Below, in pieces: positions 15,332 to 61,600 of a stretch of 64,000 nucleotides of DNA. The position numbers and the translations under genes are program-made. The DNA lies in the NCBI GenBank assembly GCA_963922205.1, contig CAWUHX010000142.1:186001-250000 (forward strand), read 5' to 3'. The stretch's first letter is position 1, and every line of letters starts with the position of its first letter. This stretch comes from Romanomermis culicivorax (Eukaryota; Nematoda; Enoplea; Mermithida; Mermithidae). The notes beneath the pieces were generated by a model that ran no database searches, had not been told where the DNA came from, and was given only the letters and a program-made list of their open reading frames with translations.

Positions 15332-16140
15332 GGGTTTTCGATCATGGGGAATTCAATGGACGCAGTCACTGCATGAAAAATTATCCTGCGTGTAACACAA
15401 AGGTATTTCCGTGGTCTTTCTGGGGAAGGGTTTTCGACTATTGGGAATTCAACGGATGCGGTCATTTTACACAAAAAATTATTCCTGGTGTAAACAAACG
15501 TATTTTCCTGATTGTTTCGTGGAAGGGGTTCTCGACCGTGCGGATTCCAATGGATGTGATCACTTTACACAAAAAAGTTATTCTGAGCGTAAACAAGCGT
15601 ATTTCCGCGAATGCGGAAGGGTTTTTGACTATTGGGAATTTAATGGATGCGATCACTTTACACAAAAAATGATCCCGAGTGTAAACAGACGAATGGCCCC
15701 GATTTTTTAGTGGACGGGGTTTTCAATCACAGAGAATTCAAAAGACGCAATCATTTTACATAAAAAGTTAACATGAGTGTAAACAAACGAATCCCCCCCC
15801 CCGCTTTCTTGGAGGAAGGGGTTTTCGACCCCAGGGAATTCAATGGACGCGGTCACTTCACACAAAAAAAATTATCCCGAGTGTAAGCAAGCGTATTTTT
15901 TCGTGGAAGAAGTTTTCGACAATGGGGAATCTAATGAATGCAATCATTTTACACAACAAAAATTATCCCAAGTGTAAACAAGTGTATTCTGCAATTTTTG
16001 AGGAAAGGACTTTCTGACCATGGGAAATTTAAGGGACGCAATCACTAGCACAAAAAATTTTCGGGTGCATAAACGAAGGCATTTCCGCGATATTTTGGGT
16101 TGAGTGGTTCTTGACCATGAGGAATTCAATCGATATGGTC
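15332..16140. repeat. Tandem repeat, about 95-bp unit, 8-9 diverged copies
   Basis: Each unit starts near GGGTTTTCGA, has GGGAATTCAATGGACGC, then TCA.TTTACACAAAAAATTAT, GAGTGTAAACAA(A/G)CG and a spacer. Overlapping frames at 15373-15710 read through the repeat because unit lengths vary; they are not genes. Confidence 0.85.
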
Positions 16141-16459: not shown

Positions 16460-16638
16460 GACTAGCTATGCTGATGTGCCGCAGAAACTAGATTCTAGAA
16501 GCAAGTCTATTTTTTGACCGAAATTTTTTTCATTATTGTAGTCATTACTGTACAGTTAAATCGTGACCTGATGGTCCATTCGTAACTCGCTCTTGCACTA
16601 CAACTTGATGATGAAAAACAATACAAATCTGTTGAACT

Positions 16639-17544
16639 TGTAACGTACCTGCTAAAGCAGTACTGTAAATATATAGCATACTGTATGTGATAAACATTTA
16701 TTAAATATTATTCATTTTCGTATTTTATCGTCTCAAGGGTGTCTGGGATTCACACCCAAACATTCCTACAAAATTATGTGAAGTACTTTATTTTGATCCA
16801 TTCACACCCCGGTAGCCCAATTAAGATGCCCTAATTAATTTGCACAAACGGCTGCTGTTCCCCTAGAACCCACACTAAACTACACATTCCACAGCTACCG
16901 TAATCCCCCATAAAAATCGTAAACAACACCTGCACACAGTAAAATATGTAGAAGCCCCGCCAGACAGTAGTCTCAAGTGTAACGGTAGCGGGGGCCCCAC
17001 AAAACATGTGTATACAGAGAAACCGATACAGGAAGCATGCACAGAAGCACAGAGGCGTGGCCAAGCCCACCGTAGAAAGCAAGCGAAGCATGAAAAGCAT
17101 ACAGTACCAGGAAAGCATTAGAAAGGCTTAACTAAGAAAGCATAAAAAGCGTAGCAGGAAGCGACGATTGGTGGAAGAAGATGGACAGAAGCACGACCTC
17201 CCGCGACGCCCAGGGAGTGGCCAAAAACGTCGTATAAAAGAAGAAGCAAAGCGTGATTTTAGTAGTTGTTGGTTAGAATTTTCAGATATCGAATTCGTCT
17301 TTTTTAAACTGCCCTCGCCCCGTCCTTTTTATATTTGCAAGCGGCCAATTTGTACGAAAGCAACTTAAACCGAGGCCCCGTTCGTATTGTAAATCGAGAC
17401 GCGTTTTGTTATTGTATCAACGTCGCAAGCAGCCGTCGATCAGTGTAACCATATCGCCCGTATTGTACCGCCCGGGCCCCTTTGTTCCCGCCGTAGCGAC
17501 CGTTGGTTAGAAGTAAAGTACCTCACACAAATCTGGTCGTTACA
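16639..17544 (+). repeat. 5' LTR
   Basis: Direct repeat of 25041-25948. It starts TGTAACG and ends GTTACA. Short minus- and plus-strand frames inside it occur in both LTRs and are shadows. The gag frame stays open back to 17503 within the LTR end, but there is no ATG there. Confidence 0.93.
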
Positions 17545-17787
17545 TATTTTGGTGACTGTACCATACCGTTAACCACTGGAACTCCCTGCCCCCAATCAGG
17601 TGTACTCTTATCCGGGCATTTAGAAGCATTAGATAATACAGTAGTAATCATTTCCTACAGTAAGACAGTATTCGTAGAAAGCAAACTAGAAATCCCCTCC
17701 AATGAAACATTAAGCGATAAATTTAAACAAATACAGCGTGAAGCAAAAATTGAAGCATTTAAGCAGAAATCCCAGCGTAAACCAAAA
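17545..17787 (+). other. Leader between 5' LTR and gag ATG; possible primer-binding site
   Basis: A TGGTGACTGTACC sequence begins a few bases after the LTR end, where a tRNA primer-binding site is expected. I cannot assign the tRNA. The frame through this leader is open and continuous with gag, so a non-ATG or upstream start cannot be excluded. Confidence 0.4.
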
Positions 17788-19536
17788 ATGACCCACCAAA
17801 CGCAAGATCATTTAGGAGAAATCCTTAGAGAACAGATAAATGATTTATTTTCGGAACATTTTCGTACCCTATGCACACAATTGAATCAGAATACAGTAAA
17901 CCCTACCCTAATAGACGATCTAGGAACAGCAAACATTCATAATAACATGGCAAATAATTTCTACGCGAAACCTACAGTATTCACGGGCGGCGTGACCCAA
18001 CATTTTGGTGAATGGAATAAAAGATTAGAACAATTCATGGCACTCCAAGGCATGAAAGATACAGACGTACAGTTAAAGTTGGCATGTTTAGAGATTCATT
18101 TAGGAGGAGCTGCATTAGCAAAATTCAAAAGTTTAGCCAATTCCGAAAATCCTCCCCACTCATACGAGCAGTATAAAGTAGCATTACAGGCATTTTTCCC
18201 AAACAATAGAGATAATGAGCTACATCAACAATTTTTACGCGAGAGAAAGCAAAAGCGATCAGAAACAGTAACTGAATTCTTGTTTGATCTAGAACACCTC
18301 GCAACCCTCGCCTACCCTAACTTTAACACAGATGCACGAGAAATGTTCAAAAAACCCCTCTTTGTAGAAGGCACGCAAAACGAAATCAGGGAAGCAATTA
18401 AGCATAGACGGTTCGCAACTTTAAAAGAAATGTCAGACGAAGCAGCTTACATCGAACAGCAAATTCTTAGAAATGAGTTAAAATCTAACACCCTTTCCTT
18501 CATACCCCCAAAACCCGAACCCATCTTTTCCCTAACCAAAAATACAAACCAACAGGATCTTTTGCATCAGTTAGAACAACAAGTAAAAGATTTACAGTTG
18601 CAGATCAAACAAAAACCTCAACCCCCACAACAGTGTAACTACAACAATTTCAGTAACAATACTTTCAGCAGGAATAATGCTTACAGAAACAATACCACCC
18701 CTAGGCAACCCACATGCTTCCAGTGTGGGCAAATTGGACACGTAGCTCGTAACTGTAAGTCAGCAGGCACCCGGAAATCATGTGAAATTTGTTTTCGTAA
18801 TAATCACAATACACGTGATTGTAAAAGTCGATGCATCCACTGCTCCCAAACAGGACATAGATCTGATAACTGCCTTTCGAAACCCTACTTAAATTTTCAA
18901 TGTTTTATATGCAAGCAGAGAGGTTATACAAGTAGGTATTGTCCAAATCAGCAGAGTCGTAATATTCAAAATTGCATTGAGTACAGGCAACCCCAACCCC
19001 TCATGGACATTGATGACCCCCCATTTTACTCAACATTACCCGCCATAACTAACGGCCCTCAGACTACTTTAGGAACAATTATGCCCACTACCCACCGCCG
19101 TAGTGAGGAATACGTCCTCCACCTGGACGTACCCGATTGGTGCGCCATGTCACCACCCCCCATGCCTGAAGCCGCAAAAACTGAAAAATCACCACCCACC
19201 ATCCCCGTAGGCTACAAGATCCCCTGCAAGCAAGACACCACGCCGCCCACCACCCCCGAAACCCCATCGAAAGCAGGCCGCAACTTATTGTCCCTTTTAC
19301 ACAGCCTGACCCCCGAACCCTACGAATTCCGCCCCCGTCAAACACTGCTACCGACCCCCGCAAGTAAGCAAGTCCAAACCCCATCCCATGACTCAACTTC
19401 TAAAATTTTACAGACCATTCAGATTGCAAACCGGCCACCCCCTCAGCCCAAAACTGAACAACACCAAAAGCGGCCACGCCAAACCGGCCAGAACGAAAAC
19501 ATACAGTGCCCCGCCGCCTCCACTAAAACATTCTAG
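17788..19536 (+). CDS. gag: Gag polyprotein with four zinc knuckles
   Basis: Structural protein of the retrotransposon particle. I choose the ATG at 17788 (582 codons); the frame is open further upstream to 17503 without an ATG. Order of parts: an N-terminal region, a capsid-like domain from about residue 55 to 190 (F.G...HFGEWNKRLEQF, later ALQAFFPNN and FLRERKQKRSETVTEF), a Gln/Asn-rich linker, then four CCHC-type knuckles at about residues 310-400. The first three keep the CX2CX4HX4C pattern; the fourth has Tyr in place of His. A long Pro-rich C-terminal tail follows. The frame ends in TAG at 19534-19536, and the envelope-like ORF continues in the same frame only two codons later. Confidence 0.92.
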   Translation: MTHQTQDHLGEILREQINDLFSEHFRTLCTQLNQNTVNPTLIDDLGTANIHNNMANNFYAKPTVFTGGVTQHFGEWNKRLEQFMALQGMKDTDVQLKLACLEIHLGGAALAKFKSLANSENPPHSYEQYKVALQAFFPNNRDNELHQQFLRERKQKRSETVTEFLFDLEHLATLAYPNFNTDAREMFKKPLFVEGTQNEIREAIKHRRFATLKEMSDEAAYIEQQILRNELKSNTLSFIPPKPEPIFSLTKNTNQQDLLHQLEQQVKDLQLQIKQKPQPPQQCNYNNFSNNTFSRNNAYRNNTTPRQPTCFQCGQIGHVARNCKSAGTRKSCEICFRNNHNTRDCKSRCIHCSQTGHRSDNCLSKPYLNFQCFICKQRGYTSRYCPNQQSRNIQNCIEYRQPQPLMDIDDPPFYSTLPAITNGPQTTLGTIMPTTHRRSEEYVLHLDVPDWCAMSPPPMPEAAKTEKSPPTIPVGYKIPCKQDTTPPTTPETPSKAGRNLLSLLHSLTPEPYEFRPRQTLLPTPASKQVQTPSHDSTSKILQTIQIANRPPPQPKTEQHQKRPRQTGQNENIQCPAASTKTF

Positions 19537-19542
19537 TGGCGG

Positions 19543-20775
19543 ATGTTTTGTATTTTTCTTTGTATAATAATCCCCACATCGTGTAGTGCCCAATTTCAGA
19601 TGTGTGGAACTTCATTGAGCGGTCACTCAGTCAGCATACCAAAACTTGTATCATGCATGCCCCCTTCCACAGTAGACAAACCCGTACAGACATTCGGAAA
19701 AATCTATATCCCCTCCACTAAGCCTCACATAACAGATGCATACAAATGCAGTGTTCGCAAACGCAAAATTTGTACTAATACAGGATTTTCTGGCTCAAAA
19801 GGTATTGTCTTCGACCAAACCGAAATGCAAAATCTAACCCCACATGTTTGTAAGGCAATCATTATAGACAAAGAACACAACAGTCAAAAATTATACGAAA
19901 CCCAACCAGGATTTTGGTCAACAAATAACTCCCTAAGCATAGAATACACATGGTGTTGTACAGACCACTGTACCTTGGTCACTAACGTCATCATAGAAAT
20001 AGGACAAATAGCATCTTGGAATGGGAAATCTATGACAGGTACATTAGGTGACCTGGGGTCATGCAAACCGACATCAGGTCATTGTGTAACAAGTGACGGA
20101 TCCATTATCTGGAATGAAACAGCATTTGAAAACTTATGCCCCTTCCAATACAAAAATACACATCCCATAAAACTCACGCAAACCCACATGATAATAGAAG
20201 AGCTACAAGGTGCATTCTCGGTTAAAAACACACTCTTTTCGAACCCCAATTGCCCAGAAATCCAAGATAGCATTCTAACTGAACAAGGCATTATTGTACA
20301 ATTAGACAAAAGCACACCACATCGTAACGCATTTTTAACCCCAAAAACCAACGAAACTCATACTACACTCTACGATTTTGATGATTTTGAACCCATTAAC
20401 GCGAAACTAAATTATCTAGCGGACAAAATCCAGGAATTCGAAATTCAAAATTTCAAAAATGTATGGAGTGAATTATGCAGACAGGCACAGCGTCGCCTTG
20501 ATCTCGTATGGCAAATTTTATGCCTTGATGCAACCCTCGGAGCGCGTGCATTTCTACAGAGAACCGACATAATAGCAGAATTCACAGGAGAAGCCCTCAC
20601 CGTCTGGCCCTGTAAACAAGTAAATGCATCTAAAATCTTTTACAACCACAAAATCAACCAAACATGCTACAAACTTTTACCCATTCTCGTAGGAACTGAA
20701 CTCATGTTTTCAAATCCAGGAGGCAACGATTTGACCCTTTTTCACAAACCGTTGACTGCCATCACATGCATGTAG
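19543..20775 (+). CDS. env: Envelope-like glycoprotein, ectodomain part (lies between gag and pol)
   Basis: A 410-codon frame starting with a short, strongly hydrophobic segment ending in small residues (residues 1-16), as expected for a signal peptide. The rest is rich in cysteines (including a CC pair and CXXC-spaced residues) and has several N-X-S/T sites, typical of a secreted or surface ectodomain. There is no membrane anchor in this frame. The anchor-like segment lies at the start of the overlapping downstream ORF, 10 bases of overlap away (20766-20775). I could not match it to a named fusion-protein class. The reading frame equals that of gag, separated by one TAG. An acceptor-like TTCTAG just before the ATG would fit expression from a spliced RNA. 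The function in membrane fusion is inferred from architecture only. Confidence 0.7.
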   Translation: MFCIFLCIIIPTSCSAQFQMCGTSLSGHSVSIPKLVSCMPPSTVDKPVQTFGKIYIPSTKPHITDAYKCSVRKRKICTNTGFSGSKGIVFDQTEMQNLTPHVCKAIIIDKEHNSQKLYETQPGFWSTNNSLSIEYTWCCTDHCTLVTNVIIEIGQIASWNGKSMTGTLGDLGSCKPTSGHCVTSDGSIIWNETAFENLCPFQYKNTHPIKLTQTHMIIEELQGAFSVKNTLFSNPNCPEIQDSILTEQGIIVQLDKSTPHRNAFLTPKTNETHTTLYDFDDFEPINAKLNYLADKIQEFEIQNFKNVWSELCRQAQRRLDLVWQILCLDATLGARAFLQRTDIIAEFTGEALTVWPCKQVNASKIFYNHKINQTCYKLLPILVGTELMFSNPGGNDLTLFHKPLTAITCM

Positions 20776-23627
20776 CCCTCTACAAACAGAACAATACATG
20801 GGTCAGTGAAACAGGATCCCCGCATGTCACAAATTTACCCTTAGAAATTGTCTGGAACCAAAATTTTTCCCTTTTCCATTTTAATACACCCGCCATTTTT
20901 CATGATCAACTTGCAACAATTTCGACAAACTTACTCTTTTTGAAACAATACATTTACAAAGCTCATATACTCGAAAACGTTGTTGAAAAACTTGTCAATT
21001 ACACTGCCCAAATGTCCCTTAACTCAGATACAGTTTACAATATGATCTCAGGCACTGGCCAAGCACTCGGAAATACCCTCTCTGGTGCCGGTCAAGGCAT
21101 AGAACATGTAATAACCGGTACCACCCAAAGTCTCACGGACGGATTAAACAATTTACTCAAAGGACCCCTGCAAATCATTATCAATCTAGCCATTATTACT
21201 GTAGTTATTGCAGGTGTCTTTTATTCTTTTCTCGTTCTTCGAAAATATTTCCCCTCTCCAAAGCATCATGCCACAAATGAACATGCGTATGAAATACCAT
21301 CAAACAACAGACGTTTACATGAGACCATTCCCCCATCATTCAGCCATGCTCTCTTAGAATTAGCTAATCGTCGTGGATCACAAACGCAGCAGAAATACGT
21401 CCTTGTCCATATTGACACCCCCCGAACTCCTGCAATCGAACTCATTAATCAAATTCAGCAATCTGCATCAAACAAGCCACCCCAAAATGTCCCTGAGAAA
21501 CATACCCCTCATATCCCAATCACACTTAATGGAAAATTAATCACGAAAGGCATGATTGACACTGGTGCAGTCTACTCACTCATTGATTCACGGATCGCCC
21601 AACTTTTACAATTAGACATGAAACCCTGGCTAGTCCAAGCAAAAGCAGCAAATAATCTCCCAATTCACTATGTAGGGACTACCTTTGTCACAGTGACAGC
21701 CCAAACAATCCAGGAAACAATAATGGTCCATGTCCAAAAAGATTGCACAGCAGACATCCTTCTAGGCAAAAACTTTCTCTGTCAATTTTCGGAATACACT
21801 ATCAACAATCAAAAATCTCAGGTCAAATTTGGCAATGTCATACTACCCTGTGATGGCCTAGAATATAGCCCTCTTTCGACCCGTAGTGGAACTTATTTAG
21901 ACGAAAAATTAGAATTACCACCCTGTACAGTAACCGAATTTACTGTCCCCTTGCCCAAATCGTACTTACAGGTCAAACAGCTTGAATTCACCCCGAAACC
22001 CAAACAGAATCCTAAAGTACATTTTGCAGCCTGTATCTCTGAAAACCAAAACAGTCGCATACGCATATCCATCCTAAACACACAAGAAACAGCCCAAATT
22101 CTTTACCCTGGAACATGCATTGGTACAGTCTCCTGTTACATCCTGAAACAAAATGCCCCCGCTATTCTAACCCCTTCAATGCAAAACCAGCCCAACCGTT
22201 TTGATACATTCACATGGTTAAAAGAAAATGTTAATTTAACCTCCAGTGACCTGACAGAAGCAGAAAAAACGCAACTCCTACGCGCCCTATCGAAATATCC
22301 TACATTATATGCTAAATCCAAAATGGACGTAGGTCGAACCACTCTTGTTTCACATACAATTGACACCAATGGCTCCCAACCCGTACGTAGACAACTTTAT
22401 CGGACTTCCCCAAAAGAAAAGCAAATCATACAAGCAGAAGTTGAACAACTCGCAGCAGCAGGTGTCATAAGCCAAAGCGATTCTCCATGGTGTACCAACA
22501 CAGTTTTAGTCCCCAAAAAAGATGGAGGCCATCGTTTATGCATTGATTTCAGAGGTCTCAATAAAGTAACCAAAAAAGATACATACCCCTTGCCCCGCAT
22601 AGACGAAATTCTAGACACCCTCCGTGGAATGAAATATTTTACGTCCCTTGACCACTCCAATGCATATTATTCCATTCCCATAGCACAGGCAGACAGAGAA
22701 AAAACGGCCTTTAATTGCTCAGCCGGCCAGTTTCTATTCAATTACCTCCCCTTTGGCCTTACCAATGCCCCAGCCACATTCCAAAGGTTAATGGATGTTA
22801 TCCTTTCGGGACTGCAATGGAACACATGCCTTGTATATCTCGACGATGTTTTAGTTTTCGCAGACTCCCATGCCCAAATGCTGGAACGTTTAGACACTAT
22901 TCTTGCCCGATTCTCACAAGCAGGCCTTAAACTAAACATACAAAAATGCAAATTCTGCCAGCCCCAAGTCCAATACTTAGGCCACGTCATTTCTCAGCAA
23001 GGCATTTCACCAGATCCCCATAAGGTACAGGCCATCTATGACATACCCACACCCAAAAGCTCAAAAGAAGTTAAGTCATTCCTTGGCCTACCCTCTTATT
23101 ATCGAAGATTCATCCCAAATTGCTCTCAAGTTTCTAGCCCACTCACATCGTTACTCAAAAAGAATTCGGAATTTTCCTGGGGACCTGAACAGCAAAATGC
23201 ATTCACTAAGCTAAAAGAATTACTCATTCATGCCCCAATACTGCAGCATCCTGATTTCACAAAACCGTTTATTCTGCAAACTGACGCCTCAAAACTCGGA
23301 ATCCGCGCCATTCTTAGTCAGCTAGATAGTAAAGGTCAGGATCCCCCCATTGCCTTTGGGAGCCGCACACTAAAACCCGCAGAACGCAACTACCCAATAA
23401 CTGAGTTGGAAACCCTTGCAGTAGTAGAGTTTGTCAAGTATTTCCGCCCCTACCTTTTCCAGCAACATGTTATTGTACACACTGACCATACAGCAGTTCA
23501 GGCAGTCTTACAAAAGGAAAACCCTTCCCCTCGCATTGCCCGTTGGGGATTAGCCCTCTCTGGTATTCAGCTAGACATTCGACCTAAGAAAGGCACTGCT
23601 AACCGCAACGCAGATGCAGTTTCTTGA
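20766..23627 (+). CDS. pol: Env membrane-anchor segment fused in frame to protease, reverse transcriptase and RNase H
   Basis: 953 codons in a different frame from ORF 2. Residues 1-130 look like the end of an envelope ectodomain with a Gly/Thr-rich amphipathic stretch. Residues about 138-160 form a clear transmembrane helix followed by basic residues, then a cytoplasmic-tail-like region. From about residue 255 an aspartic protease follows (active-site DTGA). RT spans about 500-720 with LPFGLTNAP and YLDD. RNase H spans about 800-950 with TDAS, an ELE-type acidic site and HTDH. It ends at TGA 23625-23627 just after the NADA motif that usually closes RNase H in gypsy elements. The fusion of an envelope anchor upstream of protease in one frame is highly unusual. 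Whether the ORF2/ORF3 frame change is programmed or a mutation cannot be told from one copy. Confidence 0.88.
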   Translation: MHVALYKQNNTWVSETGSPHVTNLPLEIVWNQNFSLFHFNTPAIFHDQLATISTNLLFLKQYIYKAHILENVVEKLVNYTAQMSLNSDTVYNMISGTGQALGNTLSGAGQGIEHVITGTTQSLTDGLNNLLKGPLQIIINLAIITVVIAGVFYSFLVLRKYFPSPKHHATNEHAYEIPSNNRRLHETIPPSFSHALLELANRRGSQTQQKYVLVHIDTPRTPAIELINQIQQSASNKPPQNVPEKHTPHIPITLNGKLITKGMIDTGAVYSLIDSRIAQLLQLDMKPWLVQAKAANNLPIHYVGTTFVTVTAQTIQETIMVHVQKDCTADILLGKNFLCQFSEYTINNQKSQVKFGNVILPCDGLEYSPLSTRSGTYLDEKLELPPCTVTEFTVPLPKSYLQVKQLEFTPKPKQNPKVHFAACISENQNSRIRISILNTQETAQILYPGTCIGTVSCYILKQNAPAILTPSMQNQPNRFDTFTWLKENVNLTSSDLTEAEKTQLLRALSKYPTLYAKSKMDVGRTTLVSHTIDTNGSQPVRRQLYRTSPKEKQIIQAEVEQLAAAGVISQSDSPWCTNTVLVPKKDGGHRLCIDFRGLNKVTKKDTYPLPRIDEILDTLRGMKYFTSLDHSNAYYSIPIAQADREKTAFNCSAGQFLFNYLPFGLTNAPATFQRLMDVILSGLQWNTCLVYLDDVLVFADSHAQMLERLDTILARFSQAGLKLNIQKCKFCQPQVQYLGHVISQQGISPDPHKVQAIYDIPTPKSSKEVKSFLGLPSYYRRFIPNCSQVSSPLTSLLKKNSEFSWGPEQQNAFTKLKELLIHAPILQHPDFTKPFILQTDASKLGIRAILSQLDSKGQDPPIAFGSRTLKPAERNYPITELETLAVVEFVKYFRPYLFQQHVIVHTDHTAVQAVLQKENPSPRIARWGLALSGIQLDIRPKKGTANRNADAVS

Positions 23628-23734
23628 TTCCCCTCACAGACAGTGAAGCAATCCTTTGACATTGAGCAACTCAAACCCGCCCCCAAATATCAACAATCAA
23701 TTCTGTTCTTGAGGCCGAAGCAACTGAACAATAA
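23628..23734 (+). pseudogene. Disrupted pol linker between RNase H and integrase
   Basis: The RNase H frame ends at 23627 and the integrase frame (a different one) is open only from about 23735, after a TAA at 23732-23734. At least two lesions are therefore present: a frame change and a stop. Similar linker-like coding sequence is visible in both frames here, which points to recent decay of this copy and not to a programmed design. Confidence 0.7.
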
Positions 23735-25009
23735 GAGCAACAGAAAAATTTCGCCGAACTCCAACGCACTGATCCAACTGTCAAAAGTATTTTAGCAAAA
23801 ATCGCCCAAAAACACCCCCTCACTCTGATCAAATTCGCAGTGCATCAAAACATCCTTTTCCGATTAGTCGACAAACAAGCAAAACTATACATCCCTAAGT
23901 CACAAGTCCAGCATCTCATTGCCTCTCATCATGACAGCAAATTCACAGGTCATTTTGCAGCCCGAAAAACTCTACACTTGCTCAGACAAAGATATTTTTG
24001 GCCTCAAATGAGCCGTGATATCAAACGTTACTGCAAAACTTGCCACCCATGCCAGACACAGAAAGCCCTCCGGCACAAAGTGCATGCAAATCTGGTACCA
24101 ATTCAGCCGACTGGCCCATTTGATAGAGTTGGTGTTGATTGCATGGGACCGTTACCCCTCACTGAAGATGGCAACCGATTTATTGTCGTTTTCATTGACT
24201 ATTCCACAAAGTATGTAGAGGCATTTCCAACCCCTGATATCACTGCAGCCACTATCGCCAAATTATTTGTAACCAAAATTGTTTGCCGTCATGGGTCCCC
24301 AAAAATCATCCATTGTGATCGTGGCTCCGATTTTGTATCCGATCTCTTCTCACGGATCACTAGCTTATGCAACACTCAGAAAATTCATACCACCCCATAC
24401 CATCCCATTGCCAATGGGGAAGTTGAGCGTTACAATCAGACCCTAGCCACCCGTATCCGCATGTACATCAATTCAAATCACACGGATTGGGATACTTATC
24501 TACCATATGCCGTTTTTTCGATCAACATTCATAAAAATGATAGCACGTCGTATCCCCCATTTGAATTACTCCATGGTAGGCAAGCTAATCTGCCATCAGA
24601 CGCAGCCTTAAATTTGTTCCCCACGTCCTACATGGTTGATTTAGACGATTACGCCCTTCATGTAAAATCGCATTTTACAGAAGCACTCTCAACCGTGCAG
24701 AAAAGCTTACAAAAAGCCCAAGAACACTATACCCGTCAGTATAACAAGCATGCTCAGAACATACATTACAAGGCAGGTGATCTTATTCTTTACAAGAATC
24801 ATTCATGTAAACAAGGGCTGACTCCCAAATTCCTCCCTCGCCAAAATGGGCCCTATACAGTTATAAATTTCATGTACCCCAATGTTACACTTAAACACCC
24901 CCATAAGAATATTACATTTACAGTACATGTAAACGAGACAACCCCTTTCTGCCCTCGGAAAGCAACTATCGAATCTACCCCGACCCCTCCCCACCCTCGA
25001 AAGCCTTGA
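23735..25009 (+). CDS. pol: Integrase domain of the retrotransposon
   Basis: Open frame of about 424 codons without an ATG at its start. It is the C-terminal part of pol. The N-terminal HHCC zinc finger is present (H...H then C-X2-C in CKTCHPC). The catalytic core follows with D (VDCMGPLP), D (HCDRGSDF) and E in the PYHPIANGEVERYNQ block, with the usual DD35E spacing. The C-terminal region carries a YKAGDLI-like motif, matching the GPY/F-type integrase tail. The stop lies about 20 bases before the purine tract and 3' LTR, so there is no space for a conventional 3' env. The core looks intact, but it is separated from RT by the lesions just upstream. Confidence 0.9.
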   Translation, partial: EQQKNFAELQRTDPTVKSILAKIAQKHPLTLIKFAVHQNILFRLVDKQAKLYIPKSQVQHLIASHHDSKFTGHFAARKTLHLLRQRYFWPQMSRDIKRYCKTCHPCQTQKALRHKVHANLVPIQPTGPFDRVGVDCMGPLPLTEDGNRFIVVFIDYSTKYVEAFPTPDITAATIAKLFVTKIVCRHGSPKIIHCDRGSDFVSDLFSRITSLCNTQKIHTTPYHPIANGEVERYNQTLATRIRMYINSNHTDWDTYLPYAVFSINIHKNDSTSYPPFELLHGRQANLPSDAALNLFPTSYMVDLDDYALHVKSHFTEALSTVQKSLQKAQEHYTRQYNKHAQNIHYKAGDLILYKNHSCKQGLTPKFLPRQNGPYTVINFMYPNVTLKHPHKNITFTVHVNETTPFCPRKATIESTPTPPHPRKP

Positions 25010-25027
25010 ACGAGGACGTTCAACTCC

Positions 25028-25040
25028 GGAAGGAGGGAAA
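25028..25040 (+). other. Polypurine tract
   Basis: GGAAGGAGGGAAA lies directly before the 3' LTR, the expected site of plus-strand priming. Confidence 0.85.
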
Positions 25041-25948
25041 TCTAACGTACCTGCTAAAGCAGCACTGTAAATATATAGCATACTGTATGTGATAAACATT
25101 TATTAAATATTATTCATTTTCGTATTTTATTGTCTCAAGGGTGTCTGGGATTCACACCCAAACATTCCTACAAAATTATGTGAAGTACTTTATTTTGATC
25201 CGTTCACACCCCGGTAGCCCAATTAAGATGCCCTAATTAATTTGCACAAACGGCAGCTGTTCCCCTAGAACCCACACTAAACTACACATTCCACAGCTAC
25301 CGTAATCCCCCGTAAAAATCGTAAACAACACCTGCACACAGTAAAAGATGTAGAAGCCCTGCCAGACAGTAGTCTCAAGTGTAACAGTAGCGGCGGCCCC
25401 ACAAAACATGTGTATACAGAGAAACTGATACAGGAAGCATGCACAGAAGCACAGAGGTGTGGCCAAGCCCACCGTAGAAAGCAAGCGAAGCACGAAAAGC
25501 ATACAGTACCAGGAAAGCATTAGAAAGGCGTAAGTAAGAAAGCATAAAAAGCGTAGCAGGAAGCGACGATTGGTGGAAGAAGATGGACAGAAGCACGACC
25601 TCCCGCGACGCCCAGGGAGTGGCCAAAAACGTCGTATAAAAGAAGAAGCAAAGCGTGATTTTAGTAGTTGTTGGTTAGAATTTTCGGATATCGAATTCGT
25701 CTTTTTTAAACTGTGCTCGCCCTGTCCTTTTTATATTTGCAAGCGGCCAATTTGTACGAAAGCAACTTAAACCGAGGCCCATTCGAATTGTAAATCGAGA
25801 CGCGTTTTGATATTATTGTATCGATGTCGCAAGCAGCTGTCGATCAGTGTAACCATATCGCCCATATTGTACCGCCCGCGCCCCTTTGTTCCCGCCGTAG
25901 CGACCGTTGGTTAGAAGTAAAGTACCTCACACAAATCTGGTCGTTACA
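25041..25948 (+). repeat. 3' LTR
   Basis: Near-identical to 16639-17544. Its first bases read TCTAACG where the 5' LTR has TGTAACG. It ends GTTACA before the AACT duplication. Confidence 0.93.
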
Positions 25949-26354
25949 AACTTGCTTTCTCGATACTTTTACCTGTACTTATAAGTAAATGATGAAAGCC
26001 ATGAATGTGCGTAAGTACTACTTGCATTCAGTTGTACTTGCGTCTGTCTCAGACGTGACGTACATAGCACTTTGTGGAGGTACGTAAGTACTACTTATGT
26101 ATGCTACATACAGGGAAGTATGTTTGGGCCTTTAGTTCAGCGGTTAGTTTGACAGCAAAACTTTAAGGGATCGCTAGTCATATTCTGTTAGAATAAAGGT
26201 TCACATGTTCTTATTGTATCTTGAACTGCGCTCCAACTTCAATATTGGTTCTCGATTGTTTTTTACAGAAAACGTACAATTAGAGTTCTTTCTCACCATT
26301 ACCGATTTGTGTAAACTTAGCATATGTCAAAACAGCTGTTTTTGAATTATTCAG

Positions 26355-52613: not shown

Positions 52614-55600
52614 TAGGTCAACAAGAGGAGCTTCAAAACATAGACGGGATTTGATAAATACGGAAATCGAAAAGCTCAAAGACCTGCTGCCTTTATCCGA
52701 AACAATCAGACAGAGGTTGTTTCAACTGCAAGTTATGTCGTTGGTTTGTATATTTGTCCGAAAAGAAAGATATTTACCTCGGCGTAAGCGACTTGATTCT
52801 TTGTCAGCCTACTTTTTAAACCAGGCTGACTATCTTACTGTATTCAAAAATTATATGTGATTTTTGGAAACAATGGGAGTTGCAACAGCGAGAGTTAAAT
52901 ATTTCTCATCTAGTTCGTAATTCAATTCAGTGATTTTCCTTGTCAATATTTTGTTTTATGTTTTCAGTTTTAACTCCTCCCTATGGCAATAATTTCAAAG
53001 TAAATTCCAACAATGATTTCGATTATGACGTCTGCAAAGTAAGGATAAAGTTCATATTGTTCATTATTGTTCCACTGTTGTTCTAGTGTTTTTCTACTGT
53101 TCTCATGCTTAGCATCCTGAATTTGAATTCCCAATGTAGATCAAAAATATTTGAAGAATACCATAATTTCAATCATTGTGCCAAATTTTTGATGAAGTTT
53201 TTGTAGTCTTTATACCAATTAAGATAATGAAATCAGAGTTGTGTTTAGCAGCCTGGGGCCGGTTTCATCAATGAGACTTAAGCTCCAGCTGAGCTGCAGC
53301 TTAAGCTGTAGCTTAACTCTATATGTTATATCATTGTCGTTAAGCTGCGGCCCAACTGTAGCTTAACTCATACACACAAAACATATCGAGAAAGTTGAGC
53401 TGCAGCTGAGCTGCACATTAACGGCAATGTAATAACATACGGAGTTAAGCCACAGCTCAGCTGCAGCAGCTTAACTTTCTCGATATGTTTTGTGTGCATG
53501 AGCTAAGCTACAGTTGAGCTACAGCTTGACGGCAATGTTATAACATATAAAGTTAAGCTACAGCTTAAGCTGCAGCTCAGCTGGAGCTTAAGTCACTTTG
53601 ATGAAAACGGCCCCTGATCTTTACGCCACTTTCATTCAACGAACAAACCAGAATTTGCAGTGAGACCAAAGTTGAGGATCATTTGCATCTGAATCATACG
53701 ATAATCATAATGCTTGATATAGTTTACAGCAACGTGAGTAATGCACAACAATTATTTTTTTCCGAGATGTCCTATTTATACGAAAATTTGCATAAATATA
53801 AAAAATAATCATGCATTGGATAAATCCTTGTAAATACAGAGACCAAAAGCTCACTTCCCTGATTTCGTTTAAATTTGAGAGCTTTAAAACATGGAGGTGA
53901 TAGAATATCTGATTTCCGTAATGTAAAAATTGTTCCTGGCGCCGTTTTTACTAAAGTGGTTTAAGCTCGAGATTATCTCGACTACAAAAAAGAAAACTTC
54001 GGTTTTAGTGGTTTCACTAACGTCGCGATCATCCCGAGCTCGAGATTATCTCGACGTCGCGATTATCTCGAGCTCAGGTTTAAGTCAGAGTTCGAGTTGT
54101 TGGGTTTTACTAACATTTTTCATTTAATCCTGATCCTCACGTCGGTTTCGGCTACACACAGAAGTTAATCTTAGTAGCGAGCAGGTCTAAGTCCGAACAT
54201 TTTCGTTTTTTTCCGCCAATTGTTAGAAAATAATAATATAAAATAGGATGTAAAAAAGATAGAGAAAGAAAAGGAAAAAGAGGAGAGAGAGAGAGAGAAA
54301 TAAGTAAATCATAACGAAGAATTCAAATCAACTTCCAATTTTTTAATCTCCAAAATTTAGCAACACGAAACTGCAGCCCTCACTTCATGGCGTGGTACAC
54401 TGGTAATTCAATGTTAAATTTACGGCATTGTCATAAGTAATACCGCGTTTTGGGTTCCCACAGATTACTTTTGGCCACAAATTTTTGTTTTTCAAACGCA
54501 ATTCTTTTTTTCTCCAGGACAAGCTTCTCCTTCTCCATGGCGATTTTTTCACGTTAAAGGATCCACACTTTTAACCCATTCTGTTGCGTCCTGTCTAGCT
54601 GTTACTTTTTCATATAGTAAAGGCATGTGCAGCCATGTTTTACATTTCTCCCATAATGGTTTCCAAACAAACATATCTTTTTGGTTTTTTTAGTTTTTGC
54701 AGTTTTTCTAACACGTGTCTTACAAACCACCCACTTTTTCCGTTTTCATATTTTTTATAAGGACGCGCCACATGTGTTTTTATTGCCGCATGGTCGAGAT
54801 CATCTCGAAGTCGGACTTAAACCTCAGGTTCAGCTAATCCCGAGCTCGAACTTTTTAGTGAAACCCAAAAAAGATGAAACCGACGTCGCACGTCGCGCTC
54901 AGCTGCAACTCAGTTTCAAGCACTCAATACCGATGTAGTGATGATCATCAGTTTCAGTTAGTGAAACCGGCTCCTGGTGTTTTACATGCCAATCTATTAT
55001 GGTTGAAAAGTTGTAAACTATAGACTATTTTCCAAATGAGCCTCGTGCACACCAAGATGTTCATGCAAATAATAAACAACCAGCATACACTTTTTTCTCG
55101 AATTGACCAGTTTACGATGCATGTTTACTGTCTGCTCGCTGATTTCTACGGATTATTTTGCTTTTCGTGGCTCATTTGAAACTTGATAGACTACATTTCT
55201 AGAAATTTCAATGTAAAGAAGGCCTCTGCGAAAAAAAGAACAGTCGACGCTCGTCTCACTTTGGCGCCCCATCTTACTCTGCCATTTTAACACTGTTTCC
55301 GATCATTTATTCAACCAAAATCTTAGGCTTAGGCTTAGGCTTAGGCTTAAGCTTAGGCTTAGGCTTAGGCTTAGGATTAGGCTTAGGCTTAGGCTTAAGC
55401 TTAGGCTTAGGCTTAGGCTTAGGCTTAGGCTTAGGCTTAGGCTTAGGCTTAGGCTTAGGCTTAGGCTTAGGCTTAGGCTTAGGCTTAGGCTTAGGCTTAG
55501 GCTTAGGCTTAGGCTTAGGCTTAGGCTTAGGCTTAGGCTTAGGCTTAGGCTTAGGCTTAGGCTTAGGCTTAGGCTTAGGCTTAGGCTTAGGCTTAGGCTT

Positions 55601-58600
55601 AGGCTTAGGCTTAGGCTTGAGCTTAGGCTTAGGCTTAGGCTTAGGCTTAGGCTTAAACTTTGGCTTAGGCTTCGAAACTGAGCACAAAATTTTCATAGGT
55701 ATCGGTTGTACACCAGGACATACTAGGCGCCAAGGTAAGGTGGGCACCAAAGCGAGACAGGCGCCAAAGCGAGACATGCGCCAAAGCGAACAGGCGCCAA
55801 AGTAAGACACAACTACTGCGGCAAAGTGAGACAGGACGCCAAAGTAAGACGAGCGTCAAATTGTGAAACAACCGAGAAAAATTACTAGTGTAACATTACT
55901 GAGGTTACTAAAGACTATCGAACTTCATTATGACATAAAAGGATTTTATACAAGTAAGTTACAGTTAACTATAGTCAAAAAAAACGTCAGGATGTTTTTA
56001 TTGGGGGTTGAGTTGACTTTGTCATCTAATCTTACAGGCTTTACGTGGATTTTTACTGATGGTCACAAGGCAGGGCAAATTGCTCTACTTATCCGAAAAC
56101 GCTGCCGACTACTTAGCCCATTCAGTGGTATGCATCGAACACATTTGTTTCACAAAGCTACTTGATCGTCCACATTTTCAAGGAAGAAATCATGTCACAA
56201 GGTGACAGTTTTTACGATCTAGTCGACCAAAGAGATCACGTGACCGTACAATCGGAACTATTGTCCGGTCCACCAACGTTCGCTGTATACCCAGATCGAC
56301 GAGTTTTCATGTGTCGAATGAACGTTTGCCGGACGGCTAGACGACATCCTCAATATCACAAGGTTTTTTATACATACGCCAACTCAATCAGAAATTACGT
56401 GCGTCATTAGCAAATTACGCAAAAATGGAACATTTCTAAAATAGATTTATCAGAAAACTTTATAGCCTGTAGTAGCTTCCGTTTCCAAATTTCTTCGAGA
56501 TTTTTGAACTTCTTCCACGATTGAGGACTTGCACTTTGTGAACCGTGAGAGATTTATGAAATTCATTCACCAGCATATGGAACTGGTTTGTACGTTTATA
56601 TCATCAGGAAAAAAGTCAATTTAGAATGGCACATATATTATATCGCATTAGAAAGTCTGTAGCAATTTGAGAATGTTAAATTAACAGTTATTTCTCTTGG
56701 GCCTTACCTTCGCTTAACTTTACTTGAATGCGTTAAGCAATGACAAATTTGCTGACCCGTGAAAAAATGCATTTCGCAGAGCATGCTTTGTCCACGTTTT
56801 TCAATCAGATAATCTTAACTGTTTTTGAAATTGAAGCCCTAAACTACAAAGCTTCAAAGCCTTTGCATTCATTTCAAGAAACCATAAATTCTACTGTAGC
56901 TTTTTCAACGAGGTGGCTGCTTTATCTGCACTTAATATAGGAAAGATAGTTCGTATAGAATCACTCAGGTTGCTTTGAAACAAATAATGTAGCTCACTAT
57001 TTCCTTTTTTGTCAACAAATAAACTTTGCTTGAAGTATCGCATGTACCTGATGTCCACATACACTGTGAGTCGTTTGATAAATATTCCTGTAAATTTAGT
57101 AAATAGTCATGTGACTGATCTATGATATATCTTCATTTTCCACTTTGAAAGCTTATAAATCAAAAAAGTCCAAATGCAGTCTGTCAGGACACGGAAGCTT
57201 ATTTTGCGCATTTATACAAATCTTAGTACGAAAAATGCACTGTAAGATTTCAGATTTCACATTTTTAAACCTTTCCTGTGTGTGTGGAAGTTGTATTACA
57301 AGTGCACTCATACATATAACGCAGCTCCGAGGTCAGGGGAGTCAAAAGAATTTTTTGCACACAAGTTTAGGGGGATATTTGGAGAAAAAAATTCTGATTT
57401 TTTGCCAAGAAAGTCCAAAAAATGGTTCAAAGAATGCTAATTCTTGTCTATAAAACAGTAAAAGATGTATTATAAGAAAATTGACATTTTGACCGTTTTT
57501 TTGAACGAAAATGACCATTTTTCGTTTTTACGTCCCTGTGGCTACCATATAGGCAGCCATATGAATAACGATTTCTTCTGGCTTCTTAGGGCTCTTTGAC
57601 CCCAACATACGTATGAGTGGACGCAAAACTTCCCTCCGATAACATACTATTTGAAATTTTTCAGTTTGTCTTCATCCATGGTCACTACCTGCATCCTATC
57701 GAATACTGTAACTTGGTCATCACGCAGAACAACATAGTCAATCCGGTGTTCGCGGCTTACTGTTGCCCACTGATTACGCCAGAAAATGCTGAGATTTTAG
57801 CACCTGGTAACACGAACGTTTTTTGTTCGTGGCATTCGTTGGATTTGAAATTTTTAGACGCCGATGAATTGTATATCGGACAGCTATGCCTATATTCTCA
57901 TTTTGTGAAAGTAATTTTTTCAGGGCTTCATTTCACCTAGCCTACGAAATAGAGGATTTATTGGAAAAATCGCTCTATGCTTTGTTGCACCCATCAGATT
58001 TGTCTAAGCTATCCACAAAGCACAAGCTGCGTGAGAAACATTTTTTTTTGAAAGCTTCATCCATAATATATTTGTAGCACTATTTCACAGTTAGTGAAGA
58101 TAAAGAAAGCGGCTGTATGCAATTATTGAGATTGAAAACCGGGCTCAATGAATTCACGTGGGTTCATTTGACTATGAAATTGAAAGACATCGCCCGTGAA
58201 GATCAATCAGTCCAAATGATAGCTGTAACTTATCAAATACTGAGGTGACTACTATTTTTTGACTACCAGGGTTTTTTCACACAGCAACCAAATTTTTCTG
58301 ACAAGTTGCACATTGCGACCAAGCGTTCTAAAACCGAAAATACCGGAAATTTTTCGGCGCTCTTTAATTCTTAGTGTTATTTCTAGCGCGTGGTTAGAAA
58401 ACCACGTCATAGCTTATGTTTATAGCCTTAAAACATTAACATATTATGGATAAATATTTGATCTTGTATGGTTTTTAACGTATTCGACGAAAATCGAGAT
58501 TTTCTCGATTATTTTTAGAGAATCATTTTGCGTTGGGGTCCTTGAAAATGTTCGACTTTCGTGTTTCAAGTTTCAAAAGGCTGCCAAATGACTTTGCAGG

Positions 58601-61600
58601 CCCAACTATGAATTCCTACTACGTTGTCAAAGGATGTTTAACATTAGCAGTTTTCGGGAATATGGTGTTTAGGGAACTTAAGGTATTAAGACAATGTGAT
58701 GTGGGTAAGAAAGGGAAGATATGGAATTCAAGGACTTTTGGTTTTAAGGAATGAATGGGTTTTAGGGAATTTAGAAACTCAAGGAATCTATGCATATTAA
58801 GGGAATTTAGAGAATTCAGGGAATTGAAGGAATTTAGGGAATCAAGTGAAGTAAGACATTAAGGGAATTTAGGGTATTTAGGTATTTAGGGAGTTTATGG
58901 ATTTTAGAGAATTCAGGGAATTAAAGGAATTCAGGGAATTAAGGAAATAAGAAATTAAGGGAATTTAGGGAATTAAAGGAATTTAGGGAATTAAGGAAGT
59001 AAGAAATTAAGGGAATTTAGGGAATTAAAGGGATTTAGGGAATTTAGGGAATTAAGGGAGCAAAAATCGAATATTCATGGTATTGGCTATATTAATGAAC
59101 ATCTGTATAAGTTTTAATTGATACCTGATGACTTGATTTTTGATTCTATGCCAGAAGGATAGAAAAATAGTACATATGTGCAGAATTTAAACCTATCTGC
59201 TTCTCTATGGATCACTGCAACTGTTTAATCATCAAATACATCAATCATTTCGCCACCAACAATCATACATTTTTGAAAATTCAATCCAAGATTCCCATAT
59301 CATTCCATCAGTATTCTTATAGTTTTGTCGAAATGAGAACTCATCAATATGTGCAGCTAGCCTATCCGGGCTTTTGATACCATGCATATTTGCGAATCTT
59401 TGTCGAGCTAGTCCCCATAATCCTTCGATCGTATTTGTATGTATGCCTTCCGGTGTCACAAATTGTTTGTTATGGAAAACGACATCATGAGAATATCCCA
59501 AATCGTGTAGTTTACTGTAAGTTGCTAATCCGTCATGATAAATTGTCGTTGTTTGTGGTACGTGCTTTTGAATCAATGGCAGTAATGATTCCTTACTGGC
59601 AGAGTCGACCAGGTAAAGAACACACTTAGTGCCAGATCGTTCTACAATTCCGAAAACTAGATGATCCTGACGTGATGTACCCCGTTCATTTTTGGCTTTT
59701 TTCCCCATAAAGCACTCGTCTATCTCTACAGTAAAATTGTCATTTTTAAGGAAAACAGCTTCATTGAAGATGAGCGGGTTTTTCAATAAGGCGAGTGAGC
59801 ACAATTTTCTGAATTTTTCATACCATTCAAGTATAGTTATGTAGCTTACAACTGATGATCCAAGAAGTCGTTGGGCCAAGTATGCAGGCGTGTCGCAGCA
59901 GAAGAAATACAGCAGCATAATAGACGTCTCCAATTTTAATTTTGTTGCTTCAAATATCGAATTGCTCCTAATTGATGTTTGAGTTTTGCAGGTTGAGCAT
60001 TGCCATACCACTCCATCGCTGAGTTGACCTTTTTTATTCATGGTCATGAATTTGTTGCACTTGGTACAGTTCATTTCATTTCGAATTAAACCATGGTCTC
60101 GCAAAAACCCTATTGTTTTTTCTCTTGATTGACAGATTGCAGCTATGTCAAAAATCATTCTAAAAAAACTAAGATATTAAGACACTTACGAGTAAGTACT
60201 GTAAAATCAACTGTTACACAATATTGTATATTTATTGTGCTTCTGATATTCTGCTCTTTGCTGAACTGTTTTGTCAGTCATTTTTCATTTTACAATCACT
60301 GCTGTTATCATATCTCTACATTTTTATTTATTTTACCATTTTTTTATAATTTCGTTTTGTAGATTTTCTCATATTGTACCCCTATCCTTAATTAGTTATT
60401 AACTATAAAAATTATCAATTCAATATATATTTAGCACTGTTATACATTTTGCATTAAAAACGTGTAATACAAAACACTTTATTCTATCTACTGCAACTCT
60501 AAAATACTCCTATATTAGCACTGTTTTAAATTTTGTATAATATGTAACACAAAACACATTCGTTATTCGTCCACAATGTTGAAACAAGTTTTATATTGAT
60601 CAATTAATTCTCGATAAAAGGCCTCCCATGATTGACTCAATTTCGCCAATTTAGCTGGAGGTTCATCACTAATATCTCGATTCAAAAATTGCTCATACGT
60701 GTAACCATCAAAGTCGAGTTCATCAAAAAGTTCTGGTTTTATTTCATTCCTTGGAGCTTTAAAAAAACATTGGGAACAGCGGTTATGAAGAACGCCTACT
60801 TCTTTGTAAATTCCCATATAATTTAGATCGCCAACTTTATATGTGCCCAAGTGTTTGAAATGTGTAATTATTTCTTGAGCTGTAAGCTTTCTGTTGATCC
60901 GACAAAGGAAACTTGACGTCACAACTGGTCCAGGAAAATTCATTATTAGTTTTCTTATGTCAACCTGAACTTTTCTTGTTTTCACAAAACGGATTCTTGC
61001 TCATTAATTTTGTATGCCAACAAACACGACCTTCGACAAGGGGGTCATAATGTGTTCACGTATGATCGACAAATAAACACAAATGGTTAACTTATTATTG
61101 CTTTAGCGCTTACTGCTTCTTCAAAAAAAAACCTCTAGTCCGAGGTCATATTATTGCAAACGTCACCAAAAGCAAAAACAACTGGCAATTATATTCAAAC
61201 AATGATACAATGCATATACGAGTATATGAAATAGGAGCTGTCTTAAATTTCCCTTAATCCCCAAATTCCCAAAATCTCCGTAATTCCGAAATTTTCCTAA
61301 ATTCCCTTAATTTCTTAATTCCCTAAATCCCCCTAATTCCCTATTTCGTAAATTCTCTTAATTCCCTAAATTCGTTTAATTCCCTTAATTCCCTAAATCC
61401 CGCTGCAGAAATTGGTTTCTAAACTCCACACCTGCGAAAATGTGTAGTAGGAATTCTGAGTTGGCCCACTTTGCATGGAACAAAAACCCAAAAAGCATTT
61501 TTCATATCTTTCAAACGAATATAGTTGGCCATGCTAGGGCGTCGCGGATAGAATGACCCACGACTAAAACTTTACATATCACTTCGTACCCCCCAATTAT

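What the first reader, a model, noticed from the sequence alone, without database searches (positions are those of the whole stretch)
16639..25948. LTR retrotransposon with Gag-Env-Pol gene order
Known env-bearing Ty3/gypsy and BEL elements and retroviruses carry env after pol. Here the envelope-like ORF (signal peptide, Cys-rich, N-glycosylation sites) directly follows gag, its membrane-anchor region is in frame with protease, and integrase ends about 20 bases before the purine tract, leaving no room for a 3' env. This implies an envelope domain inserted between Gag and Pol of a polyprotein, a layout I do not know from described elements.
Basis: partly seen in the sequence, partly recalled or inferred. 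Interest (0 to 1): 0.88.

Follow-up and report, generated by a model that had tools for sequence, protein, structure and literature searches.

The report
Retrotransposon with envelope inside its polyprotein
A family of virus-like jumping genes, in a genome that is probably a roundworm's, carries its cell-entry (envelope) protein in the middle of one giant protein, between the shell and copying enzymes, rather than as a separate gene at the end as retroviruses do; one planarian precedent is in print.

Summary
Window 16639-25948 is a Ty3/gypsy-type LTR element with a 4-bp target duplication and order Gag, envelope (Env), protease, RT, RNase H, integrase; no room is left for a 3' env. Env is a class III fusion glycoprotein (Pfam PF24664; its predicted fold matches herpesvirus gB and rhabdo-, xinmo- and chu-like glycoproteins). 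The layout is not an accident of this copy. At least four further families in the genome (Env 37-55% identical) and four long database proteins have Env between Gag and RT. Env is under purifying selection. Its signal peptide is internal and its start Met is not conserved, which favours a polyprotein threaded through the ER membrane, as in flaviviruses. One precedent is in print: the giant planarian Burro elements. This is therefore a compact, apparently widespread variant of a barely described kind. Processing, splicing and virion formation are untested; the host (probably a nematode) was not identified.

The parts
16635..16638 (.). target-site duplication AACT (5' copy; 3' copy 25949-25952)
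   Evidence: read; printed
16639..17544 (+). 5' LTR, TG...CA
17788..19536 (+). Gag: CA region and zinc knuckles (open frame from 17503; first in-frame ATG 17788); ends in a stop that none of the 40 other copies has at this place
19543..20775 (+). Env part 1: signal peptide and most of the class III ectodomain (PF24664 at aa 269-396)
20766..21335 (+). Env part 2: rest of ectodomain and membrane anchor, in frame with protease
21450..21800 (+). aspartyl protease (ORF3 about aa 229-345)
22356..22985 (+). reverse transcriptase
23178..23561 (+). RNase H (ORF3 aa 805-932); the frame ends in a stop at 23627 in this copy
23840..25009 (+). integrase (H2C2, rve; GPY motif read by eye)
25028..25040 (+). 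polypurine tract
25041..25948 (+). 3' LTR

Best explanation
A Ty3/gypsy-type retroelement lineage that encodes Gag, a class III membrane-fusion glycoprotein and Pol as one polyprotein, in the order Gag-Env-Pol. Shown: the order, a single open frame in many copies, conservation across families and records, purifying selection on Env, and the match to the class III fold. Inferred: the ribosome makes Gag in the cytosol; an internal signal peptide then directs the chain into the ER and is cut by signal peptidase; the Env ectodomain is luminal and the anchor stops transfer; PR-RT-RH-IN is made on the cytosolic side, as a tail of Env, until the element's protease frees it. This is the topology of flavivirus and togavirus structural polyproteins (recalled) applied to a retroelement. 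Gag, Env and Pol would be made in equal amounts, with Pol perhaps brought into particles through Env.
For: 40 of 40 RT-picked copies of the family have Env between Gag NC and PR-RT; 17 of 40 have zinc knuckle, Env start and RT YxDD in one open frame; 60 of 102 scored Env matches (window included) lie in frames of at least 2400 codons, 27 in exactly 2486. Of 68 PF24664 matches 8 divergent ones were fetched: 8 of 8 have Env downstream of Gag (L054's gag found only with a P0012 piece) and 7 of 8 have RT downstream. L057, RT-picked from a further family, has Env then PR in one open frame, and 24 of 47 RT matches of that group pair with an Env match upstream on the same strand, 19 of them at exactly 3603 nt. 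Database proteins P0006, P0007, P0010 and P0012 (2327-2597 aa) map as gagCA - env - RT - RH - IN in one chain. Selection: variants shared by 3 or more copies have (N/Nsites)/(S/Ssites) 0.08 in Env, 0.04 gagCA, 0.05 PR, 0.19 Gag tail. Class III: PF24664 68-72 bits against a cut-off of 27 in four families; all 50 PDB rows shown by Foldseek are gB, best E 2.1e-14; the viral library gives rhabdo-, xinmo-, nyami- and chu-like glycoproteins and gB. Signal peptide: read in 40 of 40 copies, first residue Met in 19, Leu in 20, Ile in 1 (counted); no Met in the 60 aa before Env in P0002, P0007 and P0008.
Against: No RNA or protein data. A spliced mRNA that supplies its own start codon is not excluded: TTTCAG lies in the Gag tail of two families (about 100 and 160 nt before the signal peptide) and looser pyrimidine-YAG sites lie upstream in all four families looked at, though in the window family TTTYAG is absent for about 350 nt upstream of the signal peptide in 39 of 40 copies. 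About half of the window-family copies do have a Met at the signal peptide (19 of 40). Database proteins P0003 and P0011 begin with Met at the signal peptide, and P0004 and P0008 end after Env, so some relatives may split the polyprotein, or are broken. The AlphaFold model is of middling confidence (pLDDT 63, pTM 0.42), with TM-scores to gB of 0.39-0.46 and rmsd 16-20 A over all domains; the longer model is poor (48.6). In the Env and RT trees the distance correlation is weak (Mantel r 0.41, p 0.069) and several nodes have low support, although 5 of 8 splits are shared.
Confidence: 0.7

Rival explanations
1. Same layout, but Env(-Pol) is made from a spliced or SL trans-spliced mRNA; the shared frame is incidental or used only for Gag-Env-Pol read-through.
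For: Retroviruses express env by splicing, and Cer1 of C. elegans has a spliced mRNA (passages of PMC10309623). TTTCAG occurs in the Gag tail of two families and looser YAG sites in all four looked at. P0003 and P0011 start with Met at the signal peptide, as do 19 of 40 window-family copies.
Against: In the window family no TTTYAG lies within about 350 nt upstream of the signal peptide in 39 of 40 copies, and the only conserved one lies after the signal peptide. A Met at the Env start is not conserved.
Confidence: 0.22
2. The segment is an extended Gag or protease domain, not a glycoprotein.
For: It is in frame with both neighbours in many copies.
Against: PF24664 above the curated cut-off in all four families scanned, gB matches by profile and by fold, signal peptide, membrane anchor, 5-10 N-glycosylation sequons in the nine Env pieces measured, some of them partial or broken, 16 Cys invariant in five families.
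Confidence: 0.02
3. A chance insertion of a viral glycoprotein gene into one element, spread passively (an EVE carried by a retrotransposon).
For: Many copies are near identical.
Against: Purifying selection on Env; the same position at 37-55% Env identity in other families and at 32-42% in database proteins; Env and RT trees share 5 of 8 splits, reached in 0 of 5000 permutations.
Confidence: 0.04

Closest known systems
Burro (GYPSM1) elements of planarians (PMC6431247, section 7 read)
   Same: gypsy-like; env in frame between gag and pol in one polyprotein; env with hits to mononegavirus fusion glycoproteins.
   Different: Burro exceeds 30 kb with a 4873-5140-aa ORF and BCL2, BIR, ankyrin, MATH and accessory ORFs; ours is 9.3 kb with about 2486 codons and none of these domains reported by Pfam at E up to 1 in the four window ORFs. 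Phylogenetic relation not testable here (no Burro sequence held).
Dingle, Ty3/gypsy of the annelid Dimorphilus (PMC7854359, passages)
   Same: Ty3/gypsy-like with a gB-like (class III) env.
   Different: Its env lies downstream of the integrase.
Anakin, BEL/Pao of mosquitoes with a chuvirus glycoprotein (PMC7642597, passages)
   Same: LTR element that captured a Monjiviricetes glycoprotein.
   Different: BEL/Pao; no in-frame position between gag and pol is stated in the passages seen. A later survey (PMC10084718, passages) found no clear evidence of such capture by Gypsy and Copia.
Cer1 of C. elegans (PMC10309623, passages)
   Different: No env between them is mentioned in the passages seen; it has a spliced cerv mRNA instead.

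Membership tests
Ty3/gypsy (Metaviridae) | domain order PR-RT-RH-IN | tested here: met
   on consecutive ORFs; (RT-RH-IN in single-chain relatives, PR by this query only in P0007 of the four full-length ones)
Ty3/gypsy (Metaviridae) | LTRs TG...CA and 4-6 bp TSD | tested here: met
   AACT twice; the 3' LTR of this copy begins TC
Ty3/gypsy (Metaviridae) | GPY/F motif in integrase | tested here: met
   NGPYTV read in ORF4; motif named in PMC12440569 passages
Ty3/gypsy (Metaviridae) | RT phylogeny inside the clade | not tested
   no reference RT set was held
Class III fusion glycoproteins | profile and fold match to gB / Monjiviricetes | tested here: met
Class III fusion glycoproteins | fusion loops, fusion activity | not testable with these tools
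Burro elements | env in frame between gag and pol | tested here: met
Burro elements | giant size (>30 kb) with BCL2/BIR/ankyrin domains | tested here: not met
   element 9310 bp; no such Pfam match
Dingle-type Ty3 with gB-like env | env downstream of integrase | tested here: not met
   integrase ends 31 nt before the 3' LTR in the window
Retroviridae | separate 3' env gene | tested here: not met
   window; in the six database relatives with integrase, Env lies before RT
Anakin (BEL/Pao with chuvirus env) | BEL/Pao pol | tested here: inconclusive
   GPY motif points to gypsy; no BEL reference compared

The most novel reading that the evidence does not exclude
A distinct, widespread retroelement lineage makes Gag, a class III entry glycoprotein and Pol as one chain threaded through the ER membrane; Pol is born as the cytoplasmic tail of Env and reaches particles through Env, not through Gag-Pol read-through. 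That would be a route of retroviral assembly and of Env expression not known from retroviruses, and a route by which a Ty3 element became an enveloped virus by internal rather than 3' gene capture.
Probability: 0.4. Interest if true: 0.88.

Novelty: new variant of a known kind. Interest (0 to 1): 0.72.

Why it matters
In retroviruses and, as a rule, in other env-bearing LTR elements env is a separate 3' gene. A compact lineage with Env inside the polyprotein, kept under selection and found in several families and in separate database records, shows that the planarian case is not a freak of giant elements. It raises direct questions: how Gag, Env and Pol amounts are set with no stop, frameshift or separate env gene, how one chain is split between cytosol and ER, and whether these elements make infectious particles.

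Tried and rejected
Stand-alone Env proteins of 225-717 aa in the 5.8-billion-protein set: 627 candidates, none at E up to 1; that length window excludes polyproteins, so I searched again with a longer unbroken piece and then with P0002. IMG/VR scans with ORF2 and with alignment A3: no relative. Rfam on the window: nothing. The host was sought through the SL1 spliced leader but the search machine did not answer; 'nematode' rests only on the TTAGGC array and recalled knowledge that this is the nematode telomere unit. A Met-count regex found nothing, so I counted from the list. Splice acceptors near Env: no TTTYAG position shared between families. The structure of the longer relative P0003 is too poor to use. 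Papers: ten answered searches; 'gag-env-pol' had no paper; 'between gag and pol' led to the Burro paper. No preprints and few subscription papers are held, so an earlier report may have been missed.
Full report
What is there. Window 16639-25948 is an LTR element 9310 bp long: LTRs of 906 and 908 bp, 97.1% identical (879/905), flanked by the duplication AACT. Between them lie Gag, an envelope-like reading frame, a frame holding the rest of the envelope with its membrane anchor followed by protease, RT and RNase H, and integrase. The integrase stop is 31 nt before the 3' LTR, with the purine tract between. No 3' env can fit. Integrase has a GPY motif (read by eye), and the domain order is that of Ty3/gypsy.

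The layout belongs to the family, not to the copy. The genome (359 Mb, unnamed) was searched with separate pieces. RT gave 150 scored matches of 7285 candidates, all 97-100% identical to the window's RT. I took 40 of these by hand down the list, with open frames from short to long, and fetched 5.6 kb of each. All 40 have the Env ectodomain and anchor between the Gag zinc knuckles and PR-RT (20 of 20, 20 of 20); gagCA was seen in 38. Zinc knuckle, Env start and RT YxDD share one open frame in 17 of 40. Among 102 scored Env matches (of 3690 candidates, the window included), 60 lie in a frame of at least 2400 codons and 27 in one of exactly 2486. The window's stop between Gag and Env is in none of the 40 (one has a different stop nearby). 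The stop and the frame break in Env of the window are therefore lesions of this copy. No list of intact copies is offered.

Other families in the same genome. PF24664 gave 68 scored matches of 2320 candidates, all above the curated cut-off, and none in 14 control genomes. Eight divergent ones were fetched. All eight have Env downstream of Gag, counting L054 whose gag needed a P0012 piece; RT follows in seven (L056 lacks it within the stretch) and PR was found in seven (not in L054 with the window query). Some of the eight belong to one family, and several are frame-broken. RT of the most divergent (L054) found yet more families; one of these (L057), picked by RT and not by Env, also has Env then PR in one frame. 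By coordinates alone, 24 of the 47 RT matches of that group pair with an Env match upstream on the same strand, 19 of them at exactly 3603 nt. Env of the families L053, L050, L054 and L057 is 55, 44, 37 and 43% identical to that of a copy of the window's family, with 16 invariant cysteines in the five.

Outside this genome. A stand-alone-length search found nothing. A search with an unbroken piece reaching from Env to RT found five proteins, 32-42% identical in Env, and a search from one of them (P0002) found ten, itself and P0003 included. Mapped by pieces: P0006, P0007, P0010 and P0012 run gagCA, env, RT, RH, IN in one chain of 2327-2597 aa, with a zinc knuckle each (a PR match was reached only in P0007 by this query; Pfam lists a protease in P0006, P0007 and P0010 but none in P0012). 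P0002 runs Gag-Env-PR-RT start. P0013 has env-RT-RH-IN with no Gag match. P0001, P0005 and P0009 begin at or inside Env. P0004 and P0008 end after Env. P0003 and P0011 begin at the signal peptide with Met. In the six with integrase (P0006, P0007, P0010-P0013) Env lies before RT, not after integrase; the search design (length windows, Env as query) limits what could be seen. Hosts are not named.

What the segment is. PF24664 (Monjiviricetes fusion glycoprotein) matches with 68-72 bits, cut-off 27, in four families. A profile of the Env pieces has five PDB matches at E up to 10: four gB (best E 0.0015) and a ribosomal protein at E 1; with L057 in place of the window piece, three gB rows stay on top but weaker, E 0.04-0.05. 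AlphaFold of ORF2 with database relatives reached pLDDT 63, pTM 0.42. Foldseek gives herpesvirus gB for all 50 rows shown (of 815), E down to 2.1e-14, 9-14% identity, over some 520 columns. In the viral library the rows shown are mainly glycoproteins of rhabdo-, xinmo-, nyami- and chu-like viruses and gB, with two entomopoxvirus proteins and one from a virus named after Ascaridia galli (virus groups by name or recalled). TM-scores are modest (at most 0.46) and rmsd large, because domains are oriented differently or poorly placed; the match is to the class, not to a close relative.

Is Env maintained? In 40 copies, variants shared by three or more copies have (N/Nsites)/(S/Ssites) of 0.08 in Env, 0.04 in gagCA, 0.05 in PR and 0.19 in the Gag tail, and singletons 0.31 in Env. 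RT values are not comparable, because copies were ranked by RT identity; copies with a broken domain were left out of that domain's count (Env used 27 of 40). Env and RT trees of 11 elements share 5 of 8 splits, never reached in 5000 label permutations, but the distance correlation is weak (r 0.41, p 0.069) and several nodes have low support.

How it probably works. The signal peptide is present in 40 of 40 copies but its first residue is Met in 19, Leu in 20 and Ile in one (counted); P0002, P0007 and P0008 also have no Met in the 60 aa before Env, only a strongly hydrophobic stretch after 460-490 residues. Env is thus most simply made as part of Gag-Env-Pol, entering the ER through an internal signal, with the anchor placing PR-RT-RH-IN back in the cytosol. 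This is inference; topology, cleavage and particles are untested. A splicing route is the main rival: two families have a TTTCAG in the Gag tail and all four looked at have looser YAG sites upstream, while the window family has no TTTYAG for about 350 nt upstream of the signal peptide in 39 of 40 copies. A conserved TTTCAG followed by ATG lies just after the signal peptide in 40 of 40 window-family copies; use of it would remove the signal peptide.

What is known. In-frame env between gag and pol was reported as a first case in giant Burro elements of planarians (PMC6431247, section 7 read). Dingle of an annelid is a Ty3/gypsy element with gB-like env after integrase (PMC7854359, passages). 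Anakin is a BEL/Pao element with a chuvirus glycoprotein (PMC7642597, passages), and a survey reports no clear capture of such glycoproteins by gypsy (PMC10084718, passages). The present lineage combines the Burro position with a compact genome. Whether it is related to Burro by descent could not be tested.

Noticed in passing
55322-55672: Internal array of about 58 TTAGGC units (41 exact triple-unit matches, none in 100 shuffles), the telomere unit of nematodes (recalled); the only support here for a nematode host.
   Followed up: partly
59241-60158 (-): 305-aa ORF with DDE_Tnp_IS1595 (ISXO2-like, E 2.4e-24): a transposase with an open frame, of the Merlin/IS1016 kind (name recalled).
   Followed up: partly
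15332-16059: Tandem array of 7.5 units of 98 bp, about 580 bp 5' of the element.
   Followed up: no
19594-19602 and the same place in 40 of 40 copies: A conserved TTTCAG followed by ATG right after the Env signal peptide, resembling a nematode splice acceptor (consensus recalled); it may only reflect the coded FQM residues.
   Followed up: partly
L057 about 1714-2774: The family with 3018-codon frames has about 1 kb between the end of the Env match and protease, in the same open frame; Pfam names no domain there at E up to 0.01.
   Followed up: partly
window about 21800-22300 (between PR and RT): The corresponding part of the relatives' profile has a weak dUTPase match (E 0.72); Burro is reported to have a dUTPase-like domain in this place.
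   Followed up: no
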